64,000 bases of DNA from Eunapius fragilis (taxonomy: Eukaryota; Porifera; Demospongiae; Spongillida; Spongillidae): NCBI GenBank assembly GCA_963681505.1, contig OY811980.1:2964553-3028552 (forward strand), in the 5' to 3' direction. Positions 15,601 through 64,000 of this stretch are shown here, in pieces; position 1 is the first letter of the stretch; every line of letters begins with the position of its first letter. A model generated the notes under the pieces. That model saw only the letters and a program-made list of their open reading frames with translations, was not told the origin of the DNA and ran no database searches. The position numbers and the translations under genes are program-made.

Positions 15601-18600
15601 CAGTAATTACGAAATATGTCTTGTAAACCAATACATTGTTTAACTCTTTCATTTCTCATCCAAATACTTGACGCAGTGAGATTGTACTTATCAGGCCCTT
15701 CAATTTGGTGCCATGCATGGACCTGTTTTCATAGTGGGCACCAAGATAAGACACTGCAAAGTTCAGATTTTGAAGAATATGCCTTGCTGCAGTTGCAATG
15801 GCAAGAGAGCGGTTTGTAAGGGTTGCACCTGTGCTAAAGGCAATAAAGTCTGCATCAACTGCTACCCAGGAAGGCAAGGTAAGTGTGCTAACGCTTCGAT
15901 TAGACCCACAGCATCTCAGACATCGTCGCAGCCGCTGCTCCCCATCCTATCGCCTTCATGCTCATCGGCTCAGGCGTCACAACAAGTAATTCCTCTCCTA
16001 TCAACGAGGCCTTCCCCGGCCGTAGATGGTCTGCCTCCTCCAGGCTCCCCATTATTGTATTCACAGCAGCTGTCCGCAAATCCACCGCTGTCTCCCGCAC
16101 AGCTGTCCACATTACAGCCGCCGCCTTCATCTTCTTCCTCCCCATCGCAATATCTACCGTTTCCAGGCCCACATCAGCCACCCTCGACATCAAGGCAAGC
16201 GTTTTCGGAACTTCCATGTCAAGTTGCGTCCCCTGAGCCCTCAGTCCCGTCCCTGCCAGAACCACCAAGTACAGATTCCCCTCTGATACATAATCCTTTA
16301 AGCTCCCACTCTACTCGGAAGAGATGCCTTGTTCCAGGGTGCACAGCTCTCTTAGCTCCTACCATGTGGCATTCACACATGTCATTTCATGCACGTGGCC
16401 TTTTCCCAGGAGATGTCCCTAGCTCTTGGTTGACTGATCAGAACCTCTCTATCTGCACTTCTTGCCATCAACTTGTGTCCAATACAAGGACAGTTTCACA
16501 TCGCAGTCGCTGTAGATCTAGAGCAATCACTCCAGATGTAGTACTCCCTCCCACCAACTTGTCAGATACCTCCACAACCAGCCACAGCCTCCCGTCTCTC
16601 GAAGAGGTTTTTCAGCTTCGCTGCCCCACCCTGCGTTTTGTCCCGGCCAGATCGAGGCCAGCCTTTGCTAGAATTCTTGCAAGCACCCTCATATCAGCTG
16701 TAAATGACAACTCAGAAGACGCATGGCTAAAACTAATGATGCTACCAAAATGTGTACTCCCTTCAACAAAGAGCAAAGGAAGACACCTCAAACAGACACC
16801 GATTAACTACTTATGTGACTTGTGGTCCAAAAACGAGTTTGGCACACTTTGGAACCTTGCCAAAGGACGTGCTATCCCAGTGGCACATGAATCTCACGGA
16901 AACGATAAAAGACGAATTGAATCAGCAGTTTCCATGGCCAGGGCCGGTCTATTTGGAAAGGCGAGCCGTCTACTTCTCTCGTCTGGACTAGCTCCCAATA
17001 CAGATACCACATGGCAGTTATTATTATCCAAGCACCCCAGTTGCCCACCTCCTGTAGCTCCATTGATACCATCCACTCCTGCCACGATTGGTCCGGATTT
17101 CAATATGCTTGCCATTTTACATTCCTTTCCTAAGGATACTGCAGCAGGTCCTTCAGGCTTAAGGATCCAACACCTGCTAGATGCTGCCACTATCCCTTTG
17201 CCCACATCCATTTGCAGTGCTCTTCGGGATGTTGTCAACCTCCTGGCATCAGGTAACGTACCCTCTCAAGTGTCTACCTACCTGGCTGGGGGCTCCCTGA
17301 CTGCACTAAATAAGGTGAAGCCGGGTTGTCCACCAGACATCAGACCCATCGCAGTTGGGGAGACATTAAGGAGGTTGACAGGGAAATGCCTGTGTGCTGT
17401 CATCAAGGACAAGGCATCTGAGCTTTTCCATCCACTTCAGTTTGGAGTAGCATGTACTGCAGGATCAGAGAAGATCATCCATGGCCTGAGGAAGTGCATT
17501 GAGGACCACTGGGATGATGAGGATTTCGTGGTGCTCAAGGTAGACATGAGGAACGCCTTCAACTTGGTCTCAAGGCAAGCCATCCTGGATGAATGCGCTT
17601 CTCTCTTCCCTGAACTCCTACCTTGGGTATTATGGTGCTATGGTACACATTCAGCACTATGGCATCCGATGGGCCGTGTGTCTTCAGAATCAGGGGTTCA
17701 GCAGGGGGACCCACTAGGCCCTTTACTTTTTGCTCTCGTGCTCCAAAAAATCATCTCCGCAGTCGATGTAGATGTTGAATGCATTGAGATGCTTTTCAAT
17801 GCATGGTTCCTGGATTATGGGGTGCTGGCTGGCCCTAAATCTGCAGTACTTAGAGCGATGCACTTGATTGAAGAATTGGGTCCTTCTTTTGGTATTTTTA
17901 TCAACCTTGCCAAATGTGAGCTGTATAGTCGTAATGAGCTGAGCAGCACCTTCCCGGTGATGATAAAGAGCTCTCAGGTGCCACATTTGGAGTTACTTGG
18001 GGCCCCCATAGGTGACTTCTTGTTTTGCTCAAAGTTCATTGCTTCTAGGCGCAAGATTGCCTCAAAGCTGCTTTCTAAATTGGAAGAGGTTGCCAGTATT
18101 GATCCTCAGGTAGCTCTTATCCTCCTGCGTTTGTGTGGTGGCTTCTGCAAAATGGTGCATGTGGCTCGAACAACACCCCCTCACCTTGCCTTTAGCTCCC
18201 TGGAGTCCTTTGACAGTGATGTCAGGATGTGTTTTTCAAACTGTGTAGCCACGGACATTTCTGATGTAGCCTGGAAACAGGCTCAACTTGGCTTGAGCTA
18301 TGGTGGCCTTGGTCTGCGCTCAATTTCACACCATTCCTGTGCGGCATACATTGCATCACTGAGCTTTTCTGGCCTGGGGAGTGCTGACAACCCTCACCTG
18401 ATGCGGTCAATTGTCAAGTACAATGGTTTGGTCTCACCTCCAGATGGCATCTCTGTGGAGTCTATTTTAGCTTCCCCGATCCCACAGAGAATCTTGTCTC
18501 AGAGGCTGGATGACCACTCTTTTGGGCTTGTAATTGCAGCTGCAACTGACGCAGACAAAGCACGTCTTCTTTCTACATCTGCACCCCATGCAACCTCTTG

Positions 18601-21600
18601 GCTCTCAGTTGTGCCTTCTATAGGTCTTGGGCTACATTTAGATCCCAATGAGCTTCAGATACCAGTGAAGTGGTGGTTGGGCTTGGACACTTCCAGAGGC
18701 TCTTCATGTGGTCTCTGCCCTGATGTGGCATTGGACCCTCTGGGCCATCATGCAGCTACCTGCCGGCGTGGTGGCGATGTAGTTATACGTCACAATAGGT
18801 TGCGTGATGTCTTTCTGAGCTTTTGCCACCAAGCCCACATTGCAGCAAGGTTAGAAGCTGGAAGTGGCCTCACTCCAGGACTGGATCGCGCTCGCCCAGC
18901 TGATGTGCTAGTGAGGGACTGGGCTCAAGGCAAGCCGGCGGCCTTTGACATCACGGTCACATCTCCTCTTACCCCTGCTATTTTGGCTGAGGCAAGTAGG
19001 AGGGTGGATGCTGCTGCTGAAGCTGCAGAAAACAGAAAGCACACAGCCAATGACCCTAAATGTGCTGAACTAGGCTGGAGGTGTGTGCCTCTAGCAGTAG
19101 AAACGTACTGCAATTGGGGTGAGGAAGCAAGAGGAACCTTTGCTCTATTGGCCACACGCTTGGCCTTTGGCTCTTCCTCATTTCGTAAAGCCAGGGTGAT
19201 CAGTGACATGTTTGGAAGGTTGAATATCACCCTGGTGAGAGCCATAGCAAGGGCCATACTGGCTAGGACTGTGATCCCTTCTGACTTTAATTAAATAATA
19301 ATAATATGTTGGTGTGTATTATGTATATATGCGTATTTGTGCTCCCTTCTGACCTCCAGATTATATGTAAACTAAATAATAATTGCTCCATTAAATGATC
19401 TCTTATATAAAGACAAATTAACATAAATGCTTTGAACATAATCTAAGCTGTGCTGTCCATCTGCTTGTTAGAATGGTATACAATAACCCAATTGCATCAT
19501 CCAATTAATAATTTGTGTAGCCCGACCACTTTGGAAAATATTGCACCGACCCTGTCCATATGTTGACAAATTAGCTGATGAAATCAAAGTATCATGCACA
19601 GTTAATAACACCATCAAAGTCCTTGTTGGTCACATGTACATGTACATGTACAATGGTTTGAAGATTGGAGTTACAGCAAGACAATTACATACATGTTCTC
19701 ATTTCAACCCTATTTAGGTTTGCTATTGAACACTGCTTGAAGTGTTATGGAACATCTTTCGCCAATGACACTGGTGGTATGTTACTCCAGCTATTGTTGA
19801 CAGTGCACGATCAGCTATGTAATGCACACAAGAGGTCTGTTACAAGCTGTCAGAAGAAAAGGTTTGTCAATTCTATGGAGAACTGATCTTGAGGCCTGCT
19901 GGCAAGGTACTTGTATCTGTGCAGCGTGTGTACTTGTTGTAGTACCATGTATAATGAACATGTAGAGATCATATGAAATCTGTGATGATCATAAAACAAT
20001 GATTTTAGTTCTCAGTGGTATTACTCTATATTGTGTGTGCGTGGACAGCCTGCTGTACCCTGTTACTAAAGGCTATACGTATACATGTACATGTTGAACT
20101 TTAATTTTGGACAGTTACAGTATCTTTTTTTTTACACCCACACAGTGGATGCACATACATTACATGATAACCATTCCAATGCTGTGTTTGTGTACAGATG
20201 AATCATTGTGTTGTACACGTACATATGCACCTGTTGGTGTGTGATTTCATGAAGTCAGCAAGGTTGAAAAAATAAATTAAACAATATAGCAATACCATTT
20301 TTCTGGACATGTGAACTTTTTAAGATAAATGCAAGAACTACATTTCTATGTACATGTACATGTACATGATAACAAAATTTCCTCATGACAATATTGTCAA
20401 TATCTAAAGGAATGGGTCTTCATCAATGTTACTGGAATCCATCCTGGTGCAGAATTATGTATAACCCATGTACATGTGCATATACACTTTTTAAGTTTTA
20501 ACATTCATGATGCATTGGTTGTAAGCTTATCATACTGTAGGGTGTATAAGGCCACTTTGTCAGATACATGTACATGTATACTTTTATATCTGTTTAAAAG
20601 TGGCTGTTCTACCTAATAGCTGGCATACGCGAGTTGCAAAAAGCTTTTATGCTACATTACATGTACGTATACATTGATATACACTTGATTCTTTGTCCAG
20701 GCACTCATGCAACAACAACATTGCTGTGAATATAGTGGGTTAGGTCTAGGAAGGAGTCATTAGATTTCATAGATGCATGATGTAAGTGTATCATCTCCAT
20801 GCTAATGAATTGGTGTGTTGCCGCAAATACCACAATGTTTAGAACTCTATCAACTATGTAGGCTGTAAAATTTAACCTTGTGCAGCTTAACAACTAGTCG
20901 ATAATTTCAAGTTAAGGGGGGGGTGGGGTACTTTTAAAATATTTATTCAATTCGACAATAATTTTGTATCACATCCAAAATAACATATTTTGATTCTATG
21001 TGTAATTATACCTCTAACTGCACAAAGCTTGAATATTGTCTTTTTGGTTTTCAAAAATAGCTGTTATGTTTTGCCTCATTTACTAGCACCATTGTTATAC
21101 ACCTGTAAACAAAAAAACGTACTAAACTAACTGTGACTTGATGCAGTTGATGCAGTTGATACAGTTGTTGATTGGTATGTACCAGCTAAACAACCCTATG
21201 AGGCGTTCCTTCACCATTGTATTAGCTTATCAACGAGCAGCGTTCTTGCTGCATGAACCCTTCTGTTTTGACTGCTTTCGCTAAAGTGCTTTCATATGGA
21301 TTCAATAAATGTCGCTGTGCTCATATTAACTATCATGAATCATTAATAGTGTTGTTCATTAGTATTCAACTCTGTCACTGAATTGGTTGTTAAACGGATT
21401 GGTCTACTCAAAATAATACATCGTACCTATTATTTGGACCCTAATGACACCTTTAGTTTATTTTTATTTTTAAACTACCATTATTTTTACGTTGTTGGTG
21501 TCATGTACTTACATGTATGCTGCAAGTACAATACATTTTCATGTTCATATACTTGTACATCCTTTCTGTTTGATTTAATGCTTTTTAGCAATGGGCACCT

Positions 21601-23397: not shown

Positions 23398-24908
23398 CCC
23401 TAGCCAGAATGGCTCTGGCAATGGACCGGATCAGGGCCATATTCAATTGCCCATAAATCTCCGCCATCACTGATGACTTGGTGGAAGACTGTGAATGGCC
23501 AGGTGAGATGCCAGCCTGGAGATATTGTCATGGGCCTATTTCCATATGTCTCCACTGCCAATGGAATGCAGGACCAACCTAACTCCTGGCATTTTGGTCC
23601 ATTGAAGTGTAGTTTACGGGCCTCTGCTGCACCAGTTTGGTGATCGACATGACTCACCTAAGATGGCTGGGCAGAGGGGTGATGTGATGGTGATGTCCAG
23701 TGCAGCAGGTTTGCCTCTGTGCAATGAGAATGTCAGCTGGCCTGGTGTGATCACGGTCCCTAGTGGGGCCATTGCCTAACACTGAGGTGAGCATGACAAC
23801 AGAGGTCAATGACCTCATCCCACAGGTGATTGTGGTGTAAAACCACTGCCTGCAGGTCACGCATGGTGACCAAGAGGATCAAGGGCAACACATGGATCGA
23901 TCTGAAGTGTCCAGTTGCAGTCACCACTTTATGGCCACCTGGTACTCATTGGACTCGAGGTGCAAGCCCTGAAGGGACCACTGATAGCCAAGTGGAAGAA
24001 TGAGGAGCTGCCACTGGCAGGAGACAAGCCCTAGCCTGTTGGCATGAGAGGAAGACTCCAACAAGGTGGAGAAAAGTTGGTCCTCGATCATTCCAGACAA
24101 AACCTTCTGGGTAGGTGTGGGAGAGGCCAGAGCAGAATTGACAGATGGCATTGGGGAGAGAGACCTGGGAGTTAAATGGCAATGAAGGCAGCAGCAGCAT
24201 GTAGAGACACAGAGCAAAGGCCTAGACCACCAAATTTCAGTCCAAGTTGTGCCTGGCACTATGCCCCATTGGGAACCTCAATCGCAGTGCATAGCGTAGA
24301 GCCTCGTTGGACATCCTCATCGAAAGATCTCAGAGCATCTGGGGCCAGGCTGGGTGGGGTCACCCTTGCTATGTGGACCATCCTGCAGAAGCTGCCACGC
24401 ATGTGCAACAAGGTAACTGCTACCTGGATATCAACTGCAGCCACATCCACCAGCCTAGACAGCGACTTCCTGGACTCTGCACACTTACCAGCAATAGACT
24501 TAGAACAGTCACCAATTGGTGCACCGAGGATATCCAAGTTGGGCAGGAGTGAACACCTCACATCAGATGGGAATGAGGTGTTTCCCTTTCTACTGAATCA
24601 CTCACACCTGGCCAAGTTTACATGGAAGCCTAGGGCTGGGCCCATCTCCTCAATCAAATGCAAGGACAGCACAGATGGGTGGCTACCAGCCAGGACTCCA
24701 TCATCTAGGTACCAGGCTTGAAGGAGGAGGTGAAAAGTATTCATCATCAATTTCCATGCTTGCTACCAGCTCGTGAAGCACTAAAGCAAACAGCAAAAGA
24801 CCCAGGGGGTCACCTTGCTGCACTCCGGATTCGGAAGTGATCTGGCCAAGTGGGTGCTAAATAGGGGGTGGGATCATAGCATCGAGATACCCATGGTGAG
24901 CTCTGGAA
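23398..24908 (-). pseudogene. RLE-LINE copy, RT motif B to C-terminus
   Basis: The minus strand holds a decayed copy of the LINE family. In order it shows a FPEL...WV region, SGVQQGDPLGLLLFALV, AWYLDDGVLAG, the LDILGAPIGD...VTLLHMRGSFCRMVHIARVTPP block, then RPADILI and CQELGWSCIPLAVETYGN near the 3' end. Several frameshifts and stops break the frame. Motif C reads YLDD here, unlike FLDY in the copy at 15765. Its 3' end abuts a poly-G run. It belongs to a subfamily closer to the copies at 27765 and 62205 than to the one at 15765. Confidence 0.85.
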
Positions 24909-32985: not shown

Positions 32986-33203
32986 TGCCTAATGTGATCA
33001 AATAGTCGGCTGTATATTTTGGTATTGTATTGTCATATTAAACGCTACTCGTATCATTATAAGGCAGAATCTTGACGAGTGTAGAATTGTCAATAACCGA
33101 ACCAGAAGACTACAGGAGCAGTAGCAAATGATTTACAATCAACTACATGTATACAGTCAATGTAAGACGTATAATTAGATATGAGAAAAAAATCTATGAA
33201 ACC

Positions 33204-33473
33204 AGTAACTAAAAACATTCTCTATGAGAAAGTTGGTGAGATATAGGATTTGAAGGCAATTGTGGTGTAAAAAGCAAGGAAACAAGGGTCTGTAATAGTA
33301 AGGGAAAATGTCATTTAGCACACGAACATAGTATATGCTACAAACGAGCTAAATATAGGACTATGACTTTTTCCCTTACTATTACAGACCCTTGTTTCCT
33401 TGCTTTTTACACCACCATTGCCTTCAAATCCTATATCTCACCAACTTTCTCATAGAGAATGTTTTTAGTTACT
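33204..33473. mobile_element. Palindromic MITE family A, copy 1
   Basis: A near-perfect palindrome has arms of about 130 bp. It starts AGTAACTAAAAACATTC and ends with the complement, and inside are CTATGAGAAAGTTGGTG and GGAAACAAGGGTCT blocks. Related copies lie at 49461-49748 and 63783-64000. No coding capacity. I could not fix the target duplication. Confidence 0.9.
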
Positions 33474-33474
33474 T

Positions 33475-35570
33475 GTATAAATTTCTATTTCCTCGACAAG
33501 AAACGTAGGTCTGATATAGTCATAACACCTTCGTCCTCGTTTAGTAATCCCACCTCTAACGACAGATCTGTTTAAACGCACTACTAGCTGCTGTTTAGAT
33601 CGAGCATTGGAAGGAATTTTCAAAAGCCTTCTTTGAGTCGATACTTTGGAAAAATGGACATGGCATGGATGATGGTGCAGACCCCGTCCATTTTTCTCAC
33701 TGATGAAAGAACATCGTTTAGAACGTTGTTTTGTTATCAACCGGATGTACAAAAACTACATGATGTTTTAATTCGCACGCTGGCTGGAACAACACAAGCC
33801 ACAGGCGGCGGAAGCAATTTGATATTATGGCATGGATTACTAACTTGAACTGCACCAATATATAGTTGGTCAGGTCCACAATCATATTAATTAAAGGTTA
33901 ACCTAACGCCACCACATACACACAGTTATGTAAGTACTATACAACAAATTATTGTTGCAATTTTGATTTTGATACAGTCTGTAGCAGAATGTAAATGTAC
34001 AGTAGACATCAGAATGTCGGTGTACAATAAAATAAAATATACCTACTGTTCTTTTTCTGTGTGGAGATGGAGCTTTTACATTGGCGGCATTATTTCTTAC
34101 TGAACTCATAAGCTTCTTATAAATAATGAATTCGATCGCCTGTATTCTTAGGCAGCCTTGTGGTAGTTACCTCAACTTTACAATTATAAATTGACGGATC
34201 TAGCTGGTTTCAAATTACAAATAAACGTAATGTTCTCAAACAGATGCAGCGCAAACTTTGTGTTATAAAAGGCTCACTTATAACACTGCTAGTAATAGAT
34301 AAATACATTGTGCACGCGTTCATGCTACGTCTGGCCATGCTTGTTAAATTATGTTGAACACAGCCGCGGCGTCAAATCATTTATTGATTTTCAATTAGTA
34401 AGACCAAGCGTACTTGATTTTCCTGTGAAATTATGGGCTGATAAAAATTGATTGAAAACAATCCGGCCCTGAGAAATCAATGATTGATTTTAGGCATTCT
34501 TTTCGCTGTGGAACGCTGAAACCCTGGCATTTAGGACAAAGCATTTTAGCTTCATTATACGATGAATATTTAATGAGCTCGGGGCCCAAGGTCATGCATG
34601 ACCTGGTCAGCCTAACCATAGATTAAGGCGGTTATTAATCTATGGCCTGATCGATTCCGCCACCACTGACCTGGGTCGAACGTCATCCTTATCCAGCCAT
34701 ACAGCTGGCAAAAATCCAGGGTCCGCCGCTAACATTTTTGCTTCCTCATTATCATCGAAGAATCTTACAAATGCCTTCCAAGTATTCATCGAAATCCTCA
34801 AAAAAGAATGTTTTACTCGTACGTGTAAGGGATACAAAGACTTGGTTAAGTTCATATCTTATCGCGTCGTTCATCGCTTTGGTGAGTGTGCCTCGGGATG
34901 CTATATCATTATTTGTTGTGGTTGCCTCCGAAAGTCATTGTGCGTGCATGCTATCAAAAGGATTCATTGATGCTCATCCTCTTCTTCAGCTGACCTCGGG
35001 CAAGGTGGGCATATGATGAACCTCTGGACAAATCATGGCCAAGCCACCAGTTTATGGCTACCAAAAGCACATTGGGTTCCAAGTGTAGGTCAAGTGCAGC
35101 AGATAGTATCACAGTACAGACAACCAGGCTGACTCAGACAAAATACGAGCTTTGTTGGCAACTAATCACACTAAACATATGTCTGGAACAGTCTACGATA
35201 AATAAGTTTCTGAGACTAACTTCTCCGTTAGGGAAGAACAGATTCTGCAGAAATGGCATCAGATGGAAGGAACTTGCTGTTAAAAAGAGTAATTGCCTGG
35301 AGACTATATTAATTATCAATGTCACCAACACCAGAGGAACATACAGAAGCAATAAATGCTGCACTTGAATGGTGAGAAAGAGATTGCAAGCCAAAGCCAC
35401 CATAGCGTTACTGAGCTGAACCTTGCCATGCGGTATTAGAGAGGTCCTACACATGCAAAGCAATCTTTAATCCACTTTCTGGTATCACCATCAAAAAGCT
35501 GCAAAGAATTAGGTGATTACCAAATTTTTTATTTTGTGCAAACTTCATTCCCTTAAAGCATGCTGATGCC
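33475..35570. other. No gene recognised
   Basis: Short open frames are present (33465-33848, 34431-34855 on the minus strand, 35054-35368), none with a recognisable domain. Confidence 0.35.
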
Positions 35571-48283: not shown

Positions 48284-49067
48284 CAGGGTCTTTGCGAAAG
48301 AGCGCAAAGCTTTAATATAATTTCTTAATAGGATTGTCAATCTAAATGAATTTATGAGCGTAAAATAACCACGTTTTGTCAAATACGAACCGCATTGTTA
48401 CAATTCGTTTATCTTTATCTTTAGCAGTTCAAACGATAAAATCAAATAACTTGCAAGCAACTAAATTGACAAAACATGAACAATGTACGACAACTTTTAA
48501 TTAATAACGTGATTTATAAACTGCAGAATAAAATTGATTACGCTTTGAAAAAGTATGAAATTTGATTGGCGTTTTACTAGTTAATATTCTAAACAACAAA
48601 TCAAACTTGAAAAAACTATATGACCAAACGTTTTTATGTTTTAATAACGCACCATTAAATAATCCATTACCAAAATCACATAGTGTTATGTACTTCATTT
48701 TATAATTTATGATGGTAATATTTTACCACATAACAGCAATTCAACCTTAATAACTTTAAAGTAATGATGGTCTTAAATGTTAATAACTCACTATTGACCC
48801 TAGGAACAATCAGTACTGTTCCGTCGCATATCCAGATCATGCGCTACTTATTATTGGATATTAAAATCAATTATCGTAAACCGCAATCTTGAATAACTTA
48901 GGGTTTGAATATTTTTTTATAAGGGATTTGATACAGTTACTTAACCGCTTGTAATTTTTTGTATTTGCCTAACTACTGCAACATATGTTAAAGAAATCGA
49001 GCAGTTAATTAATTTCAATCCTGAGTTATAGGGATTTTAAAGCGTTGCGTTCTTTCGCAACACCCTG
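48284..49067. mobile_element. 784-bp TIR element, AT-rich
   Basis: The ends are inverted repeats: CAGGGTCTTTGCGAAAGAGC at the left, and at the right the complement of CAGGGTGTTGCGAAAGAACG. Homology continues through GCTTTAA. The inside is AT-rich with many TTAATAAC-like motifs and no ORF. No clear target duplication was found, so the superfamily is open. Confidence 0.75.
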
Positions 49068-49203
49068 TCGGAAATGCAATGGCACAAAATATTCATATTT
49101 TTAAAAAGCTTATTTATCATTAAAAATCTAACTAAATCCAAACTATTGCACATTATTGTTTTAACCCCCATGTCTACATTTTTAACCTCGTCCGCCGGCA
49201 ATT

Positions 49204-49279
49204 TAGTCTCGTACCCAGACCTTCTATGACGTAAGCGATAATCGTTGTAAACAGCTCAGAAGGTCAGGGTACGAGACTA
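49204..49279. mobile_element. 76-bp micro-MITE with 9-bp TSD (Mutator-like)
   Basis: The element begins TAGTCTCGTACCCAGACC and ends GGTCAGGGTACGAGACTA, flanked by a perfect CCGGCAATT duplication (49195-49203 and 49280-49288). The same family occurs at 51351-51465. A 9-bp duplication fits Mutator-like elements. At 76 bp it is little more than two ends. Confidence 0.92.
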
Positions 49280-49460
49280 CCGGCAATTGTAAGGTACGTA
49301 TATCAACCCCCACGGGATCTTTGATGCGAACAGCTGGATGTGACATAAAGCGTTCTAAAATGATTTGAAAAGAGAACCCTATAGACGATCTCACATTCTG
49401 ACACACATCAAGTAAGTGCTGTCCCTGCACTTCGTTATCATAATGAGGATCATAACATAC

Positions 49461-49748
49461 ACAAGTAATAAAAACATTCTCTATGAGAAAGTTGGTGGCA
49501 TATAGGATTGGAATAAGGCAATATTGGTGTAAAAAGGAAGGAAACAAGGGTCTAATAAGAAGGGGAAATGTATAATAGTCCTATATTTTGCCCATTTGTA
49601 GGTCATTATGTTTGTGTGCAAAATATAGGACTATTATACATTTCCTCTTCTTATTAGGCCCTTGTTTCCTTCTTTTTTACACCAATATTGTCTTATTCCA
49701 ATCCTATATGCCACCAACTTTCTCATAGAGATTGTTTCTATTACTTGT
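49461..49748. mobile_element. Palindromic MITE family A, copy 2
   Basis: The ends read ACAAGTAATAAAAACATTC and its complement, with arms of about 130 bp carrying CTATGAGAAAGTTGGTGGC and GGAAACAAGGGTCTAATAAG. It is closer to the copy at 63783 than to the one at 33204. Confidence 0.9.
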
Positions 49749-49751
49749 TTC

Positions 49752-50400
49752 ATCTGTTTTTTAATTTCTGATAATAACATGGTGTCCAGTTGGGCTGCAA
49801 GAATATTTAGTTGCAGCAGACCCTCCCCAGATATGAAGATGGTGTATTAGGATCCCCAAATGGTGTGTAGTTGTGGAGGTGGATGTGGGGGTTGCATGTG
49901 GTGGTAGAGCAGGAGGGGTATACTGTGTGGAGGGGGGGGGGGGGGCGGGGTGTCCTAGAGAGGCACCTAGAGAGGCAGTGTCCCGATGTGGAAGTGCAGC
50001 ATCCAAGGAAATAGGGATATCCTGATGAGGAGGAGCAAGGAGCTTTGTAGTGGTGTGGATGTCCCAACATGAAGGGAACTTGATGACTTGATGAAGCAAG
50101 CAGCCGGGTGTCCACTGGTGGAAGTCCAATGGACACTATTACAGTACAGCTTGCAGAGCTTTTTCAAACATCATTATACTCCTGGGTTCATACACGGAGT
50201 AGCTATAGGAAATGATTGCAGTCATTAAAAAAACATTTCTTTTACCTATGTTAAATTTTAGCCAAAGGTATATGTAACTCAAATAGCAGTGTAATTAATC
50301 ACACCAGCATGCACACCAGGTGTTAACAAGGCATGCACAGACCTGCACGTGAAGCCTTACACATGTACATCAGATAATGAACCTCCCTTACTACAACCAT
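49752..50400. other. No gene seen
   Basis: A G-rich stretch with GATGTGG-type motifs gives proline/threonine-rich overlapping frames on the minus strand (49761-50136). These look compositional. Confidence 0.4.
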
Positions 50401-50407
50401 GGAAGCA

Positions 50408-50758
50408 GAGCATACTTCTATAGTGGTACTCCATGATACGGTAAGAACCATCCCTCCATGTTGGCTTGAAACAAATTACGCAGTGGGATGCAGCACAGAC
50501 CAAGCTACACGAACATGCTTTTTTAAACTAATAGTCACATTGGATGGCAGAGATCAAGGGATAGTTCTCAGTATCACTACATGTATAAGTACAAAGACAT
50601 GCATCACCAATTATAAAACACTACGCAAAAAACGAATTACACAGTGGGATGCAGCTAAGACCAAGCTACACGAACATGCCTTTTAAATGCATAGGATGGC
50701 AGAGATCAAGGGATAGTTCTTACCGTATCGTGGTGTGCCACTATAGAAGTATGCTCTC
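50408..50758. repeat. Inverted ends around a direct repeat
   Basis: The outer inverted blocks are AGCATACTTCTATAGTGG...ATACGGTAAGAAC (50413-50448) and its complement (50717-50755). Between them are two direct copies of a unit of about 85 bp (50477-50565 and 50639-50720), each with GTGGGATGCAGC, ACCAAGCTACACGAACATGC and ATGGCAGAGATCAAGGGATA. It resembles a small TIR element with an internal duplication. Confidence 0.8.
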
Positions 50759-53226: not shown

Positions 53227-54394
53227 TCAACATGCTAAGGAAGCTTTTGTAAAACACACTCTGTGCACAGCCACGAAGCATTTTTTTATCCAAATAGCAA
53301 CTGGAATCTTCTCACATGTGTCATGAAACCATTCACCACATTGGTCGCACATAGCTATCCGTCTTGCTCCTTGTGGTAGCCTGCAATTACAGAGTATATC
53401 AAATTTTATTTCCGAAGTAGGACGTCTTAATGGCTGTCGCTGTGTACAAGGGAAGATGCTCATGTCATGATTCATTAAACAATCCAGCAAATGATTTCGC
53501 ATAAATTGTTGATTGTAGAAAACTGTACTTATCCACATTCAGTACTTGAACAAATTCTCCTTTTTCCACTTTAAAGGCCAAAACTTCGGCAAGTGTGGTA
53601 ACTTGCAGACCACCAATGAATGGGTAACTATCTTTAAGTAGCTTTTGCGCTGCATTAATGATGTTATCAGTTAGCCATCTGCCACCAACCAGAGCTTCAT
53701 AATCAAACATTAGTAACTGAAGTGATGGTATCCAGTAGTTTGGCCCCCAAACCACTATCCGAATTGTCATCAATTTCTAATGGGTCTGAAAGTAAGCAAA
53801 CATACATATGACATATGTATCTACGTGTACATACATGTACATGTATGCATACAATTTTTTTTTACCTTGATTGGTTGGCAATCACATGGATTTTTTCTCT
53901 CTTGTGCTTGTTCCTAACTGCAGTTGTACTCTTCCTTCGTGGTTTACGCTGTGCTGCTGTAGTTGTAGTTGTTGCCTTTGCAGTTTCAACACAAACAGAT
54001 TGCGGTACTTGATTTAAGATTTGGTCCACTGAAACTGAATTCTTCGGACCAGCAACACATTCTGAATGAAAGCTGATAGGGGAAATACCCACAGTGTTCA
54101 TTTCAATAAAAAAAAACCACATGGAGTGCTGGTCACAAAATCTATATATATGATTTGTACATATAGTATTTGAAAACGTTGTGTGATGTGTGGGATGATT
54201 AGTTTGTATCATGCCAGTGTTTACTGCCCCATCAATGTGTTGGATACTAAGATTACTCTGGTCACTACTACAAACAGTGGTTGTCTCTTTAAATAAGCTC
54301 TCTTTAATTAAGCTGGTACGCTCAATGGCAGCATTCAGAAGTGTGGAAATGTGTTCAGACTTTCCTGGGTTTTCATCAATCAGTCTTGACGTTT

Positions 54395-54935
54395 CATCTG
54401 CAATCCTATCCAACATTTCCCTGGTGGATGGGTGTGGAGCAGTGTGCCCACTGTCATCTGATAATTGGTTCACAGTTCGTCTCCTCTTTGGAAATGGACA
54501 GTCATTGTTAACACATGAGTCATTGGCAATCCTTTCCAACACTTTCCTGGTGGATGGGTGTGGAGCAGTGTGCCCACTGTCATCTGATAATTGGTTCACA
54601 GTTCGCCTCCTCCTTGGAAATGGACAGTCATTGTTAACACATGAGTCATCGACAATCCTTTCCAACATTTCCCTGGTGGATGGGTGTGGAGCAGTGCGCC
54701 CACTGTCATCTGATAATTGGTTCACAATTCGTCTCCTCTTTGGAAATTGACAGTCATTGTTAACACGTGAGTCCTCGGCAATCCTTTCCAACTTTTCCCT
54801 GGTGGATGGGTGTGGAGCAGTGTGCCCACTGTCATCTGATAATTGGTTCACAATTCGTCTCCTCTTTGGAAATTGACAGTCACTGTTAACACGTGAGTCA
54901 TCGCCAATCTGTTCCAACATTTCCAAAGCACTTGT
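54395..54935 (-). repeat. Four tandem 126-bp coding repeats
   Basis: Within the Ginger-type gene, a 42-residue unit recurs about four and a half times. Each unit has LERIADDS-like, NNDCQFPKRRR and NQLSDDSGHTAPHPSTRE blocks. Copies differ at a few residues only, so the array has expanded recently or been homogenised. The KRRR cores look like nuclear-localisation or DNA-contact motifs; that is inference. Confidence 0.92.
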
Positions 54936-57476
54936 GGGTGTCAAAACGTGGCCTGAATCCACCTTATCCTTACAGATTTGTTTTTCCTTCCTCTTTGTAG
55001 ACTTCCGACCGTTACAACCATTTGTGTCTTCAAGTTTGCTTGTTTGTCACCACACACGGAAAATTTTAAGCCGACAGATGTTAGTTGTTTTCTTAAGCTT
55101 CTTCCCGATTAGATAACACATATCGTCCCTTTCCAAGTGACTCAACCACTGTGTAAGGACCAATCCATGGCTTTTGCAGCTTATCACCCTTTCTGCCATC
55201 ACGTCGGGAGTTACGTAAGAGGACCAATGTTCCAACCTTAAGTGGCTAAAGATGCAGCCAAGTGTTGTAAGATGTATATTAAGAAAAAAAGTATAAACAT
55301 ACCTTGCCTTTGCAATGTTTTTTATCATAGTCCCGTTTATGTCGTCTCTGTGCCTTGACTATGTTATCCTTGGCTGATTGGTATAAATCTTTTTTCATCC
55401 TTACCATTCTTGCAATTATTTCTTCAGCTGTCTCAATCCTATTTTGGCCTTCTACCTCTACATCACTGTTAGAAGAAATTTCTTCTCCTGGTTCATTTTC
55501 AATAGGAAGGACAGCTTTTCTAAGAAAGTACAAACAAATATATAACATCACAACAAATATTTGCCAATAAACCTACCTGCAAAACATTAATTCAAATGGT
55601 GTAACAGCAGTAGATTTGTGCACAGATGTGCGATAGGCAAACAAGCCCCCATCCAGAAACATGTTCCAATTATTTTGCTTCTCACTGACAAGCTTTATCA
55701 AAGACCTCTGAATGGTCTGATTATAATGCTCAACTAAACCATTGCACTGAGGATGATAAGCTGAAGCTATCTTGTGTCGGGTACCAGTGAGGATGAATAG
55801 TCTTTTGCATACTTTATTAACAAACTCCCTACCCTGATCACTGATAATTGATCTTGGAGCTCCAAACCTACAGTGTATACATGTATGCATACAAGAATAG
55901 TATTACATGTAGATGTAATGCCATACAATACTCATTTATTGGTGTATTAAACTGGTGTGTATGGAGCATACTTCTATGTAGGGTACTTCTATGTAGGGAC
56001 TGATGGGTATGGAGAGTACTATGTAGGGACTGCATGGTGGGTATGGAGAGTACTATAGGTGCAATGCAGATACATGTTCTGCACCTGCATATCATGGTAT
56101 ACAGGAACGAGGCCACACCCTCTGCAGTCTTGTCTTTCAGTGGAACTGCTTCGGGCCATTTTGAAAAATAATCCATGAGGGTCACAATATATCGATTGCC
56201 TGATAAGGTCTTGGGGAGGGGTCCAATGAGATCAATGCCAGCCTGTACAGTACAATGCTATGAAATTAATATGTATGTGGTTGATGTGTCATTTACTTCA
56301 TGTTTTAAAATGGGAGTCATAGGCGGCCCCAACGCTTACCAAAGGGAGGGGCCAACCCCACGAAGGGCGCCAAAGGGGGAGGGGCATTATGGATTTTGCA
56401 ATCTTAGTCATTTGTAAATCGCTATTTGTACGCTCAGATGAGTGTTAGTAGCTATTTTACACATAGTTACATGTAGTACTCATATTGCAACGCTACAGTA
56501 AAAATTACTTATAGGGGTTGGGGGGGGCGCCATAACCAGAGGAGGGGGGTGCCATGGCCCCCTGGGCCCCCCCATGGGGCTGCCTATGGGAGTAACTATC
56601 ATATAAAAAATTAATTGCAGCTCTGAAATAGCATGAATTAACAATGTGTACTATTGCAAGAAAAAATATAGATCACTTTAGAATACACTTGGCACCTCAG
56701 AAAATTGAAGCACTTTTGAAGTAGTTTGGGAGCATTTTATGTATCTGTGTAACACTCAAATAAAATGAAACAAATGTTGAGTGATAATAGGTGCCAAAAT
56801 AATTGAGGACATGTACATTTGTGCACTTACAAAGTACCTGGTTCCACACTTGTGACTTAACAGGAATTGGGTGATGAGCAGTGTCAACCTTAATAAATTT
56901 TGCGTCATTGACTCTTTGGCAGGTATCACAGTTCTGAATAAATTGGCGGATATCATCAGCCATATTCTCCCAATAAAACCTTGATGTTATCTTTTCTAGT
57001 GTCTTGTCCCTTCCAAAATGTCCTCCTAGGATATGAAGAGCCAGCTATATAAATTACTAGAAAAACTTTTGTGTTATCACTTTGTTTTAAAGAATAAGCT
57101 TTCTTAACTAAGTCAAGTTTTGGAGTTGTAACGAATTGAACAAGGTATACAATCATAATAAAATTTCAATGCGAGATTACGAACTGACCAGATAACATGT
57201 ATACATAACAAGTCGACATGTTAGCTACAGGACTAGAATTGTGTCAGATACTTAGCTTGTTCATTGTACTAACACTGTCATAGCAGAGCCACTCCCAACC
57301 AGAGCCATTCTCTAAGCTGACGGTATATATGAACACGTACCTTCAGGTGATGCATGACAGGCTGTCAGTATGCGAAATCGTTCGTCTTCTTCCGCTACTA
57401 CTTTTCTCCATTGACGCTCCGCGATCGAGGCTGATTGCTTCCTCGTAAGAGGATTTGCAAATGCAGAATAAAAGAG

Positions 57477-59035
57477 GGTTCTTGTGAAGATCTCCCCCCC
57501 CCCCCCCCCCCCCCCTCGCACCTATACTTTTACGGTACAGATATTCAATTAACATCTTATTGACACCTCAATGACATAATACATTCCACATCTCAAACTA
57601 ACACTATTAAAATTCTTCATTCCGCGACGCGAGCAAATGTTATTGATTTATCTCTAACATGCACAAACAGTAGTGAACACTTACAGTAATGAGCGTTTCA
57701 TTTTTCGCCGGTACTGGTCCACACCCCTCTTGTAAATTCTCGTTCCAGCTGGGCCTAGTTTAGGTTCAGTGTAAAGGGGATAAGTGCATTGGCTTCACTC
57801 CCCTATGCTAGCATGGCACACCCATTCTAACGCCCCCCATTTTCTAACCCTAAGTGAAGCCAATGTACTTATCCCCATTACACTGAACCTAAACTAGGCC
57901 CAGCTAGAACGAGAATTTACAAGAGGGGTGTGGACCAGTACCGGCGAAAAATGAAACGCTCATTACTGTAAGTGCTCATTACTGTTTGTGTTAGAGAATA
58001 TATTTAAAACCTGATGGACCGTCTTTATTTGCCCATCTCATACAACATACCCTGTTTGAGATGATAGATGCGCGGAATGCATTGTCATTGAGGTGTCAAT
58101 AAGATGTTAATTGAATATCTGTACCGTAAAAGTATAGGTGCGAGGGGGGGGGGGGGGGGACAGTGGCGGCGGAAGTGGGGGGGCTGGGGGGTCTCGAGCC
58201 CCCCCAAAAATGGCATTGGAGGGGCTGAGCCCCTCCTCTAACAAAAGGTCCTGAAAATAAATTAATATATACGTATTGTTAACTTATTACAATGCGGCAC
58301 TGGAACTCGGCTATCGTATCAAATTGTATTCATATTTAGTACATGTACAGACGAACGTGCGTGACTGTCGTCGCCTCAATTGCTATATCCTGCAGCTGTT
58401 CTATCACGTGCTTGACAAAATGAAGCGAAGGCAGGTTCATTTAGATGAAGCGTGGTCATTGAAGCGGGATAAAATTCAGGTCATCGAGGTGGTAACGAGC
58501 AAACCAAAGACGATACAGGCCCAGTTGACTTACCTCAATGTGCGATAGAGCCCACGTTGCCAACAGCTACCTCAACCTAGTCCTAGCATTGATTCTGAGT
58601 TGCTACCAGCTAACTGTTCAGCGGACTCGAATTACCACCGCCTACTTCTAATTGTCCGGAGGAGCTGCAGCCAGAAGACATTGCACCAATCGTCCTTGCT
58701 GCTAATGATTTGACAGCTTGCGACTGTCGAAGTACGTGCTGTAGCAATAAGAGTGAGGTTTATCAGCCTAAACAGATAGAAGTATTGAAAGGTCTTAAAG
58801 ATGTAACAGATCGTATCAATTTACAAGACGTCGCAAAAATTTATAGCTGTTAATGATGAGCGATCGCATTATTTTGGCTCGTTTACTTCGTAACTTTGCG
58901 CATACGCATGCACACTTCATTTGAATCAACAGATTTTGGGTTAAAAGTATTAATGAATTTAATTATCGTCGCTTTTAGAGCCCCCCCAATCTTATATACC
59001 TTCCGCCGCCGCTGGGGGAGATCTTCACAAGAACC
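57477..59035. mobile_element. Foldback element with 8-bp TSD, inserted in Ginger exon
   Basis: The ends GGTTCTTGTGAAGATCTCC and GGAGATCTTCACAAGAACC are exact complements, flanked by a perfect TAAAAGAG duplication (57469-57476 and 59036-59043). Almost the whole left half (57477-57815) is the complement of the right half (57815-58160), with TTTACGGTACAGATATTC, CTGGTCCACACCCCTCTTGT and CCTAAACTAGGCCCAGCT-type blocks on both sides. Without the secondary insertion (58161-59014 plus its duplication) it is about 700 bp. The 8-bp duplication fits hAT-like or similar foldback elements. It splits an exon of the minus-strand gene. Confidence 0.95.
58161..59014. mobile_element. CAGTGGCG-type TIR element nested in the foldback
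   Basis: An 854-bp element starts CAGTGGCGGCGGAAG and ends CTTCCGCCGCCGCTG-like. It is flanked by a GGGGA duplication (58156-58160 and 59015-59019) inside the poly-G part of the foldback's right arm. It contains a 90-codon plus-strand frame (58276-58548) and a later CDCRSTCCSNKSEVY segment (58725-58770). I recognise neither, but they may be remains of a transposase or a captured gene. Confidence 0.88.
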
Positions 59036-59942: not shown

Positions 59943-60189
59943 CTAAGTGTTGAAGTTGATAGGTTGATTTGATTCTCTCATCCAGCATTAGATGGACGAG
60001 ACCAAGGCCTATGCGGGATATTATTATTATCAAGTGCAGAATGAACAATTTTGTACTCAAACAATGATGTTCTATACTGGGTAAGCCAGCGACTATATAG
60101 ACTCCTTCATGCAGAGAATCTATTCATGGATCTTAAAAAGTAATAATGCAGTACAAAGTCAATGAAGACATGTAAAGGAAATCCTCGTT

Positions 60190-61665
60190 TGAATCGTTTG
60201 GCCTAATCAATGTTACGCAAGCACTAACTGATATGTAAGCCAGTCTGGGCCCATATACGTTAGTGCAAGGTGATTAATTTCATATGTGACAGCGATCTTC
60301 TATAATCATTGAGCCGTTTAGTCTAAAGTTCTGTCAATGCAAGCATTAACCGATAAAAACCTATCTGGACCCGTATACGTTAGTGCAAGGGGATTAATTA
60401 CGCATGCAAACAAGGATTTTATGTATTTGGTAAGCCTGTGATTGTAGAAGCGCTCGTGCAGCGTACCTTTGGTAAAAATTTCATCAGTTTTAAGTTAGCT
60501 ATGTCAACCCAAGTATGCAAGCCAGTCTGGGCCCCTATTCGTTAATGCAAGAGGATCAATTTCGTATGTTCACAGGGATTTTTATCATCTTTAAGCATAA
60601 AATTGTAGGCATCCTTACACACACTTAGACTGTAACTGTTTTTAGTCTTAACTTTTTTCAATGCAGGAACTAACCAAAGCAAGCCAGTTCGTGTGGTGGA
60701 CCCGTATACATTAGTGCAAGATGACTAGTTCCTTATGGATTTTATGTTATTAATATAAGCCTGACATTGTAGACACTGTGGTGACAGTACCTTAGATAAT
60801 AATTTCATCAGTTTTTATGTTATGCTAACGCAAGCATGCAGTAGAGGCTGACAACTATATGTCCGTAACGTTTGTGCAAGATCAACAACTCCCAAATACA
60901 AAAATTGGATTTTTCTGTAATCGGTACATTGCAATGGCTGAAGTTCTCATTAAGAGTGCCTGTTGATAGAAAGTTTATTAGTCTGTCAACACATTCAAGT
61001 GGACCCTGTTTTCATAAGAAATTTAAATCAGTCGTCTCGCACTAACGTATACGAGTTCACACTGGCTTGTATCGGTTAGTGCTTGCATTAACAGACTTAA
61101 GTAAAAAGGTACTGTGCAAGTGTATATGAGAATGTCTACAATTTCAGGCTCAACGATTATAGAAATCCCTGTTTACGTATACGTTCACCTTGCACTAACG
61201 TATACGGGCCCAGACTGGCTTGCATATCGGTTAGTGGCAACTAACTTAAAACTGATGAAGTTATTACCAAACGTACTCTGCACGAGAATTTGTGCGATCT
61301 CAGGCTTACCAATCACATAAAATCCTTTTTGCATGCGTAAATAATTCCCTTGCACTAACGTATACGGTTTGTATCGGTTAGTGCTTGCATGCATCGACCG
61401 AATGAAGGACTAAAATCAGTAAGTGTGTGTAAGGGTATTTACAATTGTAGGTTCACCGATTGTAAAAAAAAATTAAATCCTAGTTAACATACGAAAATGG
61501 TTTGCGGTTAGTGCTTGCATTGACAGAAACCAGCAAGTTAGTGTGAAGAGTGTTTACAATTGTAGGCTCACCGATTACAGAAAATCCCTGTTAACATACG
61601 AAATAATTCATTTTGCACTAACTTATACCAGTGGCTCGCATCAATTAGTGTTTGTATATTACTAT
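60190..61665. repeat. Head-to-head array of ~160-bp units with GTTAGTGC octamers
   Basis: At least five units on the left carry CCCGTATACGTTAGTGCAAGG-like cores near 60259, 60379, 60541, 60710 and 60869. Then units in the opposite orientation carry CCTTGCACTAACGTATACGG near 61039, 61191, 61351 and 61614. Orientation flips around 60960. Each unit also has the same octamer inverted about 40 bp away (AAGCACTAAC or GGTTAGTGCTTGCAT), so each can form its own hairpin. A GGATTTTC...GGTGAGCCTACAATTGTAG-like spacer recurs. An outlying GCACTAACGTATA lies at 62071. No ORF explains it. Confidence 0.88.
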
Positions 61666-61669
61666 GAAT

Positions 61670-62200
61670 TATTCATCTATAGCACTATATATACCGCTCT
61701 ATAAGTTACATGTATAAGTTTTACTTTGCAGGACACAACGTCTATAATCAGAACCGAGCATCTTGATAATCCTTAAATCCTGGGAAGGCACCGTTCGCTA
61801 AAGAATTTGGGCGGGCAGGATACGACCAGGACATTCTGCCTGTGAAAGACAAATCCAAGTAACCAGCTCACAGATATGAGGTGCCTCTTGGGAGGATGTT
61901 CGGTCTGCAAGCACGATTTTTAGGGAGAAGCGTAATCCCGTTACACCGACACTGACGTTAGTTTCAATTGTTAATGCCATCCGTTTGAATTTTTCATTAT
62001 TCATCGTAATATACATATATAAATAAAATTTATGACCACACTGGCGCGAGCCACAGTCGTACGCCCCATTTGCACTAACGTATAAATGTATGATACACCG
62101 TGTGAATAACCTATAAAGCACGTGGGTGAAGGGGAGACATAGACTTAAGGAGACGTGGTCATACGCCATAATCGACTACGGGATGAGATATTCGACACCT
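61670..62200. other. No gene recognised
   Basis: A 123-codon minus-strand frame (61798-62169) shows no recognisable domain. The outlying GCACTAAC core at 62071 lies within it. Confidence 0.4.
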
Positions 62201-63782: not shown

Positions 63783-64000
63783 ACAAGTAAATAAAAAACA
63801 TTCTCTATGAGAAAGTTGGTGGCATATAGGATTTGAAGACATGGTGGTGTAAAAAGGAAGGAAACAAGGGTCTAATAATAAGGGAAAATGGAATAGTCCT
63901 ATATTTAGCACATTTCTATATGTAGGATATAGTATGTTGTTCGTGTGCTAAATATAGGACTATTCCATTTTCCCTTATTATTAGACCCTTGTTTCCTTCC
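63783..64000. mobile_element. Palindromic MITE family A, copy 3 (cut by window end)
   Basis: It begins ACAAGTAAATAAAAAACATTC and contains CTATGAGAAAGTTGGTGGCA and GGAAACAAGGGTCTAATAAT, then returns in inverted order towards the window edge. Its right end lies outside the window. Confidence 0.9.

What the first reader, a model, noticed from the sequence alone, without database searches (positions are those of the whole stretch)
60190..61665. Head-to-head array of hairpin-forming units, GTTAGTGC octamers
About nine units of 113-170 bp are arranged five in one direction and four in the other, meeting near 60960. Each unit carries GCACTAAC and GTTAGTGC about 40 bp apart around a CCCAGACTGGCTTGCAT-like loop, so the array is palindromic at two scales. 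Neither a TIR transposon nor a simple satellite explains both levels. Possible readings are a foldback element that grew by unit duplication, a Helitron-like hairpin cluster, or a regulatory or replication-linked repeat.
Basis: seen in the sequence. Interest (0 to 1): 0.72.

Follow-up and report, generated by a model that had tools for sequence, protein, structure and literature searches.

The report
Palindromic repeat array inside a transposon
The head-to-head hairpin array is real, but it is one internal part of an old, broken jumping-DNA family, built from repeated inverted copies of the short sequence that marks the element's own ends, and it is an unusual variant of a known design rather than a new kind of system.

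Summary
The array is real and far beyond chance: 10 exact GTTAGTGC/GCACTAAC octamers in 1.48 kb against 0.07 expected, and a palindrome with its main axis near 60870. I count five units on each side, one half decayed, rather than 5+4. It is not a satellite. It is the middle of a dispersed DNA transposon: seven array-bearing copies and five partial ones are listed in a 219-Mb, 24-contig genome. The element has ~36-bp terminal inverted repeats (two near-copies of TGTATCATATACGTTAG) and a 5-bp target duplication, shown for one copy by empty sites. The unit motif GTATACGTTAGTGC is that terminal motif, so the array is an internal palindrome of transposon-end motifs. Left of it, five of seven array copies keep broken pieces of a piggyBac-type transposase gene. 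It is probably captured, because relatives have ordinary piggyBac ends. The array formed once, before the copies spread. Most likely use: reiterated transposase-binding sites, as in Foldback/Galileo and CACTA elements. That step is inferred; the mobilising transposase was not found.

The parts
59945..60032 (+). Fragment of the 5' part of a piggyBac-type transposase gene (pseudogene)
   Evidence: DNA match 82-88% to L057, L058 and L063; translated fragments of L057 and L063 hit PF13843 DDE_Tnp_1_7. The window fragment itself gave no hit in the protein comparison.
60031..60218 (+). Non-coding lead-in of the array module, shared with the C4, C18b and C12 copies
60219..60881 (+). Left arm: five units, cores L1 60219-60269, L2 60339-60389, L3 60499-60551, L4 60663-60720, L5 60823-60881, motif GTATACGTTAGTGC on + strand; spacers of two related types
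60882..61035 (.). Central spacer between the arms (longest, 154 bp)
61036..61657 (-). Right arm: five units, cores R5 61036-61086, R4 61189-61239, R3 61349-61388, R2 61484-61519 (half), R1 61612-61657, same motif on - strand
61658..62068 (+). Non-coding right flank of the element, matched in 11 of the 12 copies listed (not in C4:8.76M there); the window copy lacks ~95 bp near 61659-61666
62069..62097 (-). Right terminal inverted repeat (one motif plus tip: TTTGCACTAACGTATAAATGTATGATACA); no left terminus found in the window

Best explanation
The array is the internal, head-to-head part of a non-autonomous TIR DNA transposon. Shown: the element has ~36-bp TIRs starting TGTATC, made of one or two copies of a 17-bp motif (TGYATCRTATACGTTAG), and moved as a unit leaving a 5-bp target duplication. 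Each array unit carries the inner part of that motif (GTATACGTTAGTGC or a decayed form), usually with a degenerate inverted second copy some 11-25 bp away. Left-arm units are oriented like the left TIR and right-arm units like the right TIR. The array arose once: two unit types existed, at least part of an arm was duplicated in inverted orientation, and the whole then spread with the element. Inferred: the units are extra binding sites for the transposase (not identified), either gathering transposase at the element or tuning its activity, as proposed for the reiterated sites of Galileo/Foldback and CACTA elements. Inferred: the piggyBac gene pieces to the left are captured cargo, not the enzyme that moved the element. 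Every copy seen is diverged and broken.
For: Seven array-bearing copies on C1, C2, C4, C10, C12 and C18 (two), and partial ones on C1, C4, C13 and C15 (two). All 17 listed genome matches of one 66-bp unit lie in the seven copies. Of 24 genome hits to GTATACGTTAGTGCAAG with 0-1 mismatch, 23 lie in the copies. Two copies have both TIRs and 5-bp direct repeats: C4 GGTGC, C13 CATGT. The C4 site joined without the element matches seven other loci at 81-87% without a break across the join (and more at 66-68%); the three of these seven that were read have a single GGTGC. A third 5-bp repeat, AGAGT, is inferred from the C18 pair, weakly: the left tip there has no TIR and no empty site was found. Within the window's array the motif is the most conserved 17-column window (0.871 pairwise identity against 0.553 elsewhere; 9 of 10 units, R2 left out). 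Tree of 46 units from six copies: seven of eight positions are monophyletic, the eighth (L2) is mixed only with R3; palindromic partners L2/R3 (0.93) and L1/R2 (0.80) group together. [quoted passage not shown] CACTA Tgmt*: 24 subterminal repeats able to form 12 palindromes at one end (PMC2613891, passages).
Against: Between copies the octamers are no more conserved than the spacers (0.882 against 0.887, P=0.67), so there is no sign of selection on the sites since the copies diverged. Of eight units folded singly, only two are clearly better than shuffles and two weakly. The third testable palindromic pair, L3/R4, does not group together in the tree, and the R1 clade has support 0.25. No transposase for these ends was identified. 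Only two copies with both TIRs were recognised.
Confidence: 0.7

Rival explanations
1. The palindromic array is a passive by-product: inverted and tandem duplication of the element's subterminal region by fold-back or template-switching repair, carried along with no binding role.
For: No excess conservation of octamers between copies; decayed and half units (R2, L3, L5); an internal inversion in the C12 copy with one breakpoint inside a unit motif; other strong palindromes exist in the window and in a high-copy repeat of the genome.
Against: Within the array the end motif is far better kept than the rest of the unit (0.871 against 0.553), which is unexpected if units were passive from the start; the motif is that of the TIR.
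Confidence: 0.25
2. The piggyBac-type gene is the element's own transposase, which acquired new ends (TGTATC...) and a 5-bp target duplication; the array is its binding-site cluster, in the way piggyBac's cysteine-rich domain binds palindromic subterminal repeats.
For: Five of seven array copies (window, C1, C2, C4, C12) and the array-less C13 copy carry pieces of the same gene in the same orientation; the two C18 copies have none. The stretch between left TIR and start codon in C13 resembles the upstream region of the C6 piggyBac relative a little more than any of 200 shuffles (score 37, shuffle maximum 32). piggyBac CRDs bind a palindromic sequence (PMC11707139, passages).
Against: Relatives of the gene have ordinary piggyBac ends: C6 has TTAA-CCCCCTCTGCCTGGC and GCCAGGTGTCGGGGG-ATTAA (read by eye); C12:3.88M, 77% identical in protein over the matched part, has the right end CAGGTGTCTGGGGATTAA, though its left end was not recognised. 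DNA similarity to C12:3.88M stops ~10 bp before the ATG; beyond it, C4 and C13 score no better than shuffles. Target duplications are not TTAA.
Confidence: 0.12
3. Satellite, centromere or replication-linked repeat, or Helitron hairpin cluster.
For: Tandem units with hairpins.
Against: 17 of 17 listed unit matches lie in element copies (counts are lower bounds); TIRs and 5-bp target duplications; no Rfam family at gathering thresholds in the window.
Confidence: 0.02

Closest known systems
Foldback-type elements: Galileo (P superfamily), Tetris, Drosophila FB
   Same: DNA transposon with internally repetitive, palindrome-forming inverted arms; in Galileo the repeats carry secondary transposase-binding sites (PMC3688188, abstract); Tetris is apparently non-autonomous with ~220-bp internal repeats (PMC4079207, abstract).
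   Different: In those the repeats sit inside long terminal inverted repeats; here the true TIRs are ~36 bp and the palindromic array is internal. Galileo copies are flanked by 7-bp sequences (PMC3573991, passages), here 5 bp.
CACTA/EnSpm elements with asymmetric subterminal stem-loop repeats (Tgmt*, En/Spm)
   Same: Asymmetric cluster of a short motif in paired inverted orientation, pairs able to form stem-loops (PMC2613891, passages).
   Different: No CACTA termini, 5-bp instead of 3-bp duplication; here the motif is the TIR motif itself and the cluster is also head-to-head at kilobase scale.
piggyBac superfamily
   Same: Most array copies carry pieces of a PF13843 transposase gene.
   Different: No TTAA duplication and no CC..GG ends; gene broken in every copy seen and sharply bounded at its start.
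Ginger2/TDD
   Same: TG..CA ends, TIRs, 4-5-bp duplications (PMC2836005 and PMC10045372, passages).
   Different: Tips read TGTAT, not TGTNR; no Gypsy-like integrase gene found in the element.

Membership tests
TIR (class II) DNA transposon | Terminal inverted repeats at both ends | tested here: met
   C4 and C13 copies, both ends; other copies have lost or not shown the left end
TIR (class II) DNA transposon | Target-site duplication, empty site | tested here: met
   GGTGC in C4 with seven unbroken empty sites at 81-87%, three read; CATGT in C13
Foldback/Galileo-like | Long terminal inverted repeats made of internal tandem repeats | tested here: not met
   TIR ~36 bp; palindromic array is internal, ~440 bp from the right tip in the window
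Foldback/Galileo-like | Transposase-binding sites in the repeats | not testable with these tools
   Only motif identity with the TIR shown
piggyBac | TTAA duplication and CC..GG ends | tested here: not met
   end motifs of the relatives not found in L056-L061 and L063, two one-mismatch hits to a 9-mer in L062
piggyBac | DDE_Tnp_1_7 transposase gene of the element's own | tested here: inconclusive
   Broken gene present; boundary suggests capture, but one weak upstream resemblance to the C6 relative speaks the other way
CACTA/EnSpm | CACTA termini and 3-bp duplication (2-4 bp recalled for the superfamily) | tested here: not met
   Termini TGTATC, 5 bp
Ginger2/TDD | TGTNR termini | tested here: not met
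   Inward reading TGTAT in eight right tips (window, L056, L057, L060-L064); the L058 tip has a short deletion
Ginger2/TDD | Gypsy-integrase-like transposase | tested here: inconclusive
   None seen in the copies; an rve-like ORF beside the C18a copy (below the Pfam cut-off) lies in the locus shared by both C18 duplicates
Helitron | No TIR, no target duplication (recalled) | tested here: not met

The most novel reading that the evidence does not exclude
A piggyBac-lineage transposase left its TTAA/CCCC ends and came to mobilise an element with TGTATC ends and 5-bp target duplications, with an internal palindromic array of end motifs evolving as its binding platform: an end-swap between transposon superfamilies caught in a genome.
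Probability: 0.1. Interest if true: 0.6.

Novelty: new variant of a known kind. Interest (0 to 1): 0.35.

Why it matters
It shows, in a transposon that fits none of the families compared here, the same apparently convergent design: multiplication of the end motif into inverted units. Because array positions can be followed across six copies, the order of events (unit types, inverted duplication, spread) can be read. It is also a probable case of a piggyBac gene riding inside an element with foreign ends. It is of interest to transposon specialists; it does not open a new field.

Tried and rejected
Rfam scan of the window: nothing at gathering thresholds. Satellite and isolated-unit readings: not supported. 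Assembly error: not supported, since the same head-to-head order recurs in dispersed diverged copies. Left TIR in the window: none within 3 mismatches. TGTAACATATCCCTTAGTGCA, a similar string with 12 exact genome hits, was listed but not followed; relation unknown. Hits of the TIR tip on C7, C21 and C3 (L070, L072, L073): the pieces read have other interiors beyond the tip (the C21 one resembles the left end over ~50 bp); an autonomous element was looked for on C7 and not reached. A search with the 258-bp left end found only the C13 and C4 copies. An rve-like ORF beside the C18a copy was considered as a Ginger-type transposase and set aside: it lies in the locus shared by both C18 duplicates, and its stretch matched no other fetched left flank. 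A test for extra conservation of octamers between copies was negative. The C18b left tip aligned to the known left ends no better than shuffles allow (157 and 18 of 200 shuffles reach the score). In one search the L057 comparisons are void: the start string was not found and the wrong stretch was taken. No paper listed appeared by title or abstract to describe this element; one search searched three letter strings of it and its four hits look unrelated by title. That is not proof of absence in print.

Full report
What is in the sequence. The region 60219-61657 holds ten related cores, five with the motif GTATACGTTAGTGC (or a decayed form) on the + strand (L1-L5) and five on the - strand (R5-R1), the R2 core half decayed. 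Exact octamers GTTAGTGC/GCACTAAC: 10 in 60190-61665, expectation 0.07; one more in the whole window, at the element's right end. Both octamers are exact in three of ten cores (L1, R5, R3). Spacers are 69-154 bp and of two related types, so the arm has a higher-order period near 300 bp (spacer L2-L3 against R4-R3 86%, against L4-L5 80%). The main palindrome axis is near 60870. The strand folds to -303 kcal/mol, z -20 against 40 shuffles, but 15 other segments of the window reach -131 to -380, so strong palindromes are not rare here. Of eight single units folded (L5 and R2 not tried), L1 and R3 are clearly better than shuffles, R5 and R4 weakly so, L2, L3, L4 and R1 not.

What it belongs to. The window lies in contig C10 of a 219-Mb, 24-contig genome. 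A search with 60000-62200 lists array-bearing copies on C1, C2, C4, C12 and C18 (two) besides C10, and partial copies on C1, C4, C13 and C15 (two); matched pieces of the array copies are 76-91% identical (counts are lower bounds). All 17 listed matches of one 66-bp unit lie in the seven array copies. Six copies aligned together share the same order through the centre of the array (the C12 copy was left out because it is rearranged) and have + motifs on the left and - motifs on the right. This speaks against a mis-joined assembly and against a satellite.

Ends. Eight right ends (window, L056, L057, L060-L064) end in GATACA, a ninth (L058) with a short deletion; two left ends were recognised (C4, C13). 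Left and right ends are inverted copies of each other over ~36 bp with a few mismatches, made of the 17-mer TGYATCRTATACGTTAG in one or two copies. The C4 copy (4050 bp, with a nested ~700-bp high-copy repeat) is flanked by GGTGC, the C13 copy (1670 bp, most of the array deleted) by CATGT. The C4 site with the element left out matches seven other loci at 81-87% without a break across the join, and others at 66-68%; three of the seven were read and have one GGTGC. For the C18 pair AGAGT is found at the left in one duplicate and at the right in the other, but the left tip there has no TIR and no empty site was found. The window copy keeps its right end at 62097; its left end was not found. A search with the 258-bp left end lists only the C13 and C4 copies.

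The motif. The array motif is the TIR motif. Within the window's array its 17 columns are the best conserved window (0.871 pairwise identity, other columns 0.553; nine of ten units). Left-arm motifs have the orientation of the left TIR and right-arm motifs that of the right TIR. Between six copies, however, octamers are no more conserved than spacers (0.882 against 0.887), as expected of dead copies decaying evenly; this gives no support to a function since they diverged.

History. In a tree of 46 units from six copies (L5 and R5 not used; the C12 copy not used; units under 70 bases dropped) L1, L3, L4 and R1-R4 are each monophyletic by position (R1 with support of only 0.25), L2 is mixed only with R3, and the palindromic partners L2/R3 (0.93) and L1/R2 (0.80) group together; the third testable pair, L3/R4, does not. 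So the array formed once, with an inverted duplication of at least part of an arm after the two unit types existed, and was then copied with the element. In the C12 copy the left part of the array is inverted, with one breakpoint inside the R4 motif and the other in the transposase gene remains.

The piggyBac gene. Left of the array in C1, C2, C4, C12 and the window, and in the array-poor C13 copy, are pieces of one piggyBac-type gene (PF13843), joined to the array module at different points; the two C18 copies show none. The closest relatives are at C12:3.88M and C15:2.88M (77% and 78% of residues over the matched part of a read-through query). The C12 one ends CAGGTGTCTGGGGATTAA at the right; its left end was not recognised. 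A 51% relative on C6 has both ordinary piggyBac ends, as read by eye. These end motifs were not found in L056-L061 or L063; L062 has two one-mismatch hits to the 9-mer. DNA similarity between the C4 copy and C12:3.88M is 87% just inside the start codon and no better than shuffles upstream of it, for C4 and C13 alike. Against this, the C13 upstream stretch scores a little above all of 200 shuffles when compared with the C6 relative (37 against at most 32), so a shared upstream origin is not excluded. I read the whole as probable capture of the gene by an element with other ends. The superfamily of that element is not settled: TG..CA ends with 5-bp duplications recall Ginger2/TDD (4-5 bp, TGTNR; PMC2836005 and PMC10045372, passages), but the fifth base does not fit and no integrase was found in the element.

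How it probably works. Reiterated end motifs inside a transposon are known as secondary transposase-binding sites in Galileo (PMC3688188, abstract; PMC3573991, passages) and as subterminal stem-loop repeats in CACTA elements (PMC2613891, passages); in piggyBat, interior sites restrict activity (PMC11707139, passages). The same use, gathering or tuning transposase, is the likeliest here, but it is inferred.

Noticed in passing
window 15713-19294: Open 1193-aa reverse transcriptase ORF (RVT_1); shorter ORFs that look related by eye at 24259, 27860, 30583 and 36210, so one retrotransposon family seems to recur in this window.
   Followed up: partly
L056:5904-6600; related DNA at window 63783-63998: A high-copy repeat (40 copies scored at 94-98% identity, out of 2780 first-look candidates) whose distal ~286 bp matches itself in inverted orientation at 93-94%; it is nested in the C4 element copy. 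Window 63783-63998 matches it at 79-84%.
   Followed up: no
L061:3158-5507: C12 copy of the element with its left array part inverted; one breakpoint falls inside the end motif (GTTAG/TGC), which would fit a cut by transposase at an internal site, or ordinary repair. One case only.
   Followed up: partly
L059 and L060; L064 and L065: Two local duplications: C18 loci ~14 kb apart share ~3.4 kb at 88%, C15 loci ~28 kb apart share ~2.4 kb at 90%, each with an element remnant.
   Followed up: no
window 57001-58476, 49001-50476, 33001-34476: Stretches that fold more strongly than the array or nearly as strongly (-380, -284, -263 kcal/mol); possibly other palindromic repeats.
   Followed up: no
window 54394-54924: 126-bp tandem repeat, 4.2 copies, 93% matches, inside an open frame on the - strand.
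   Followed up: no
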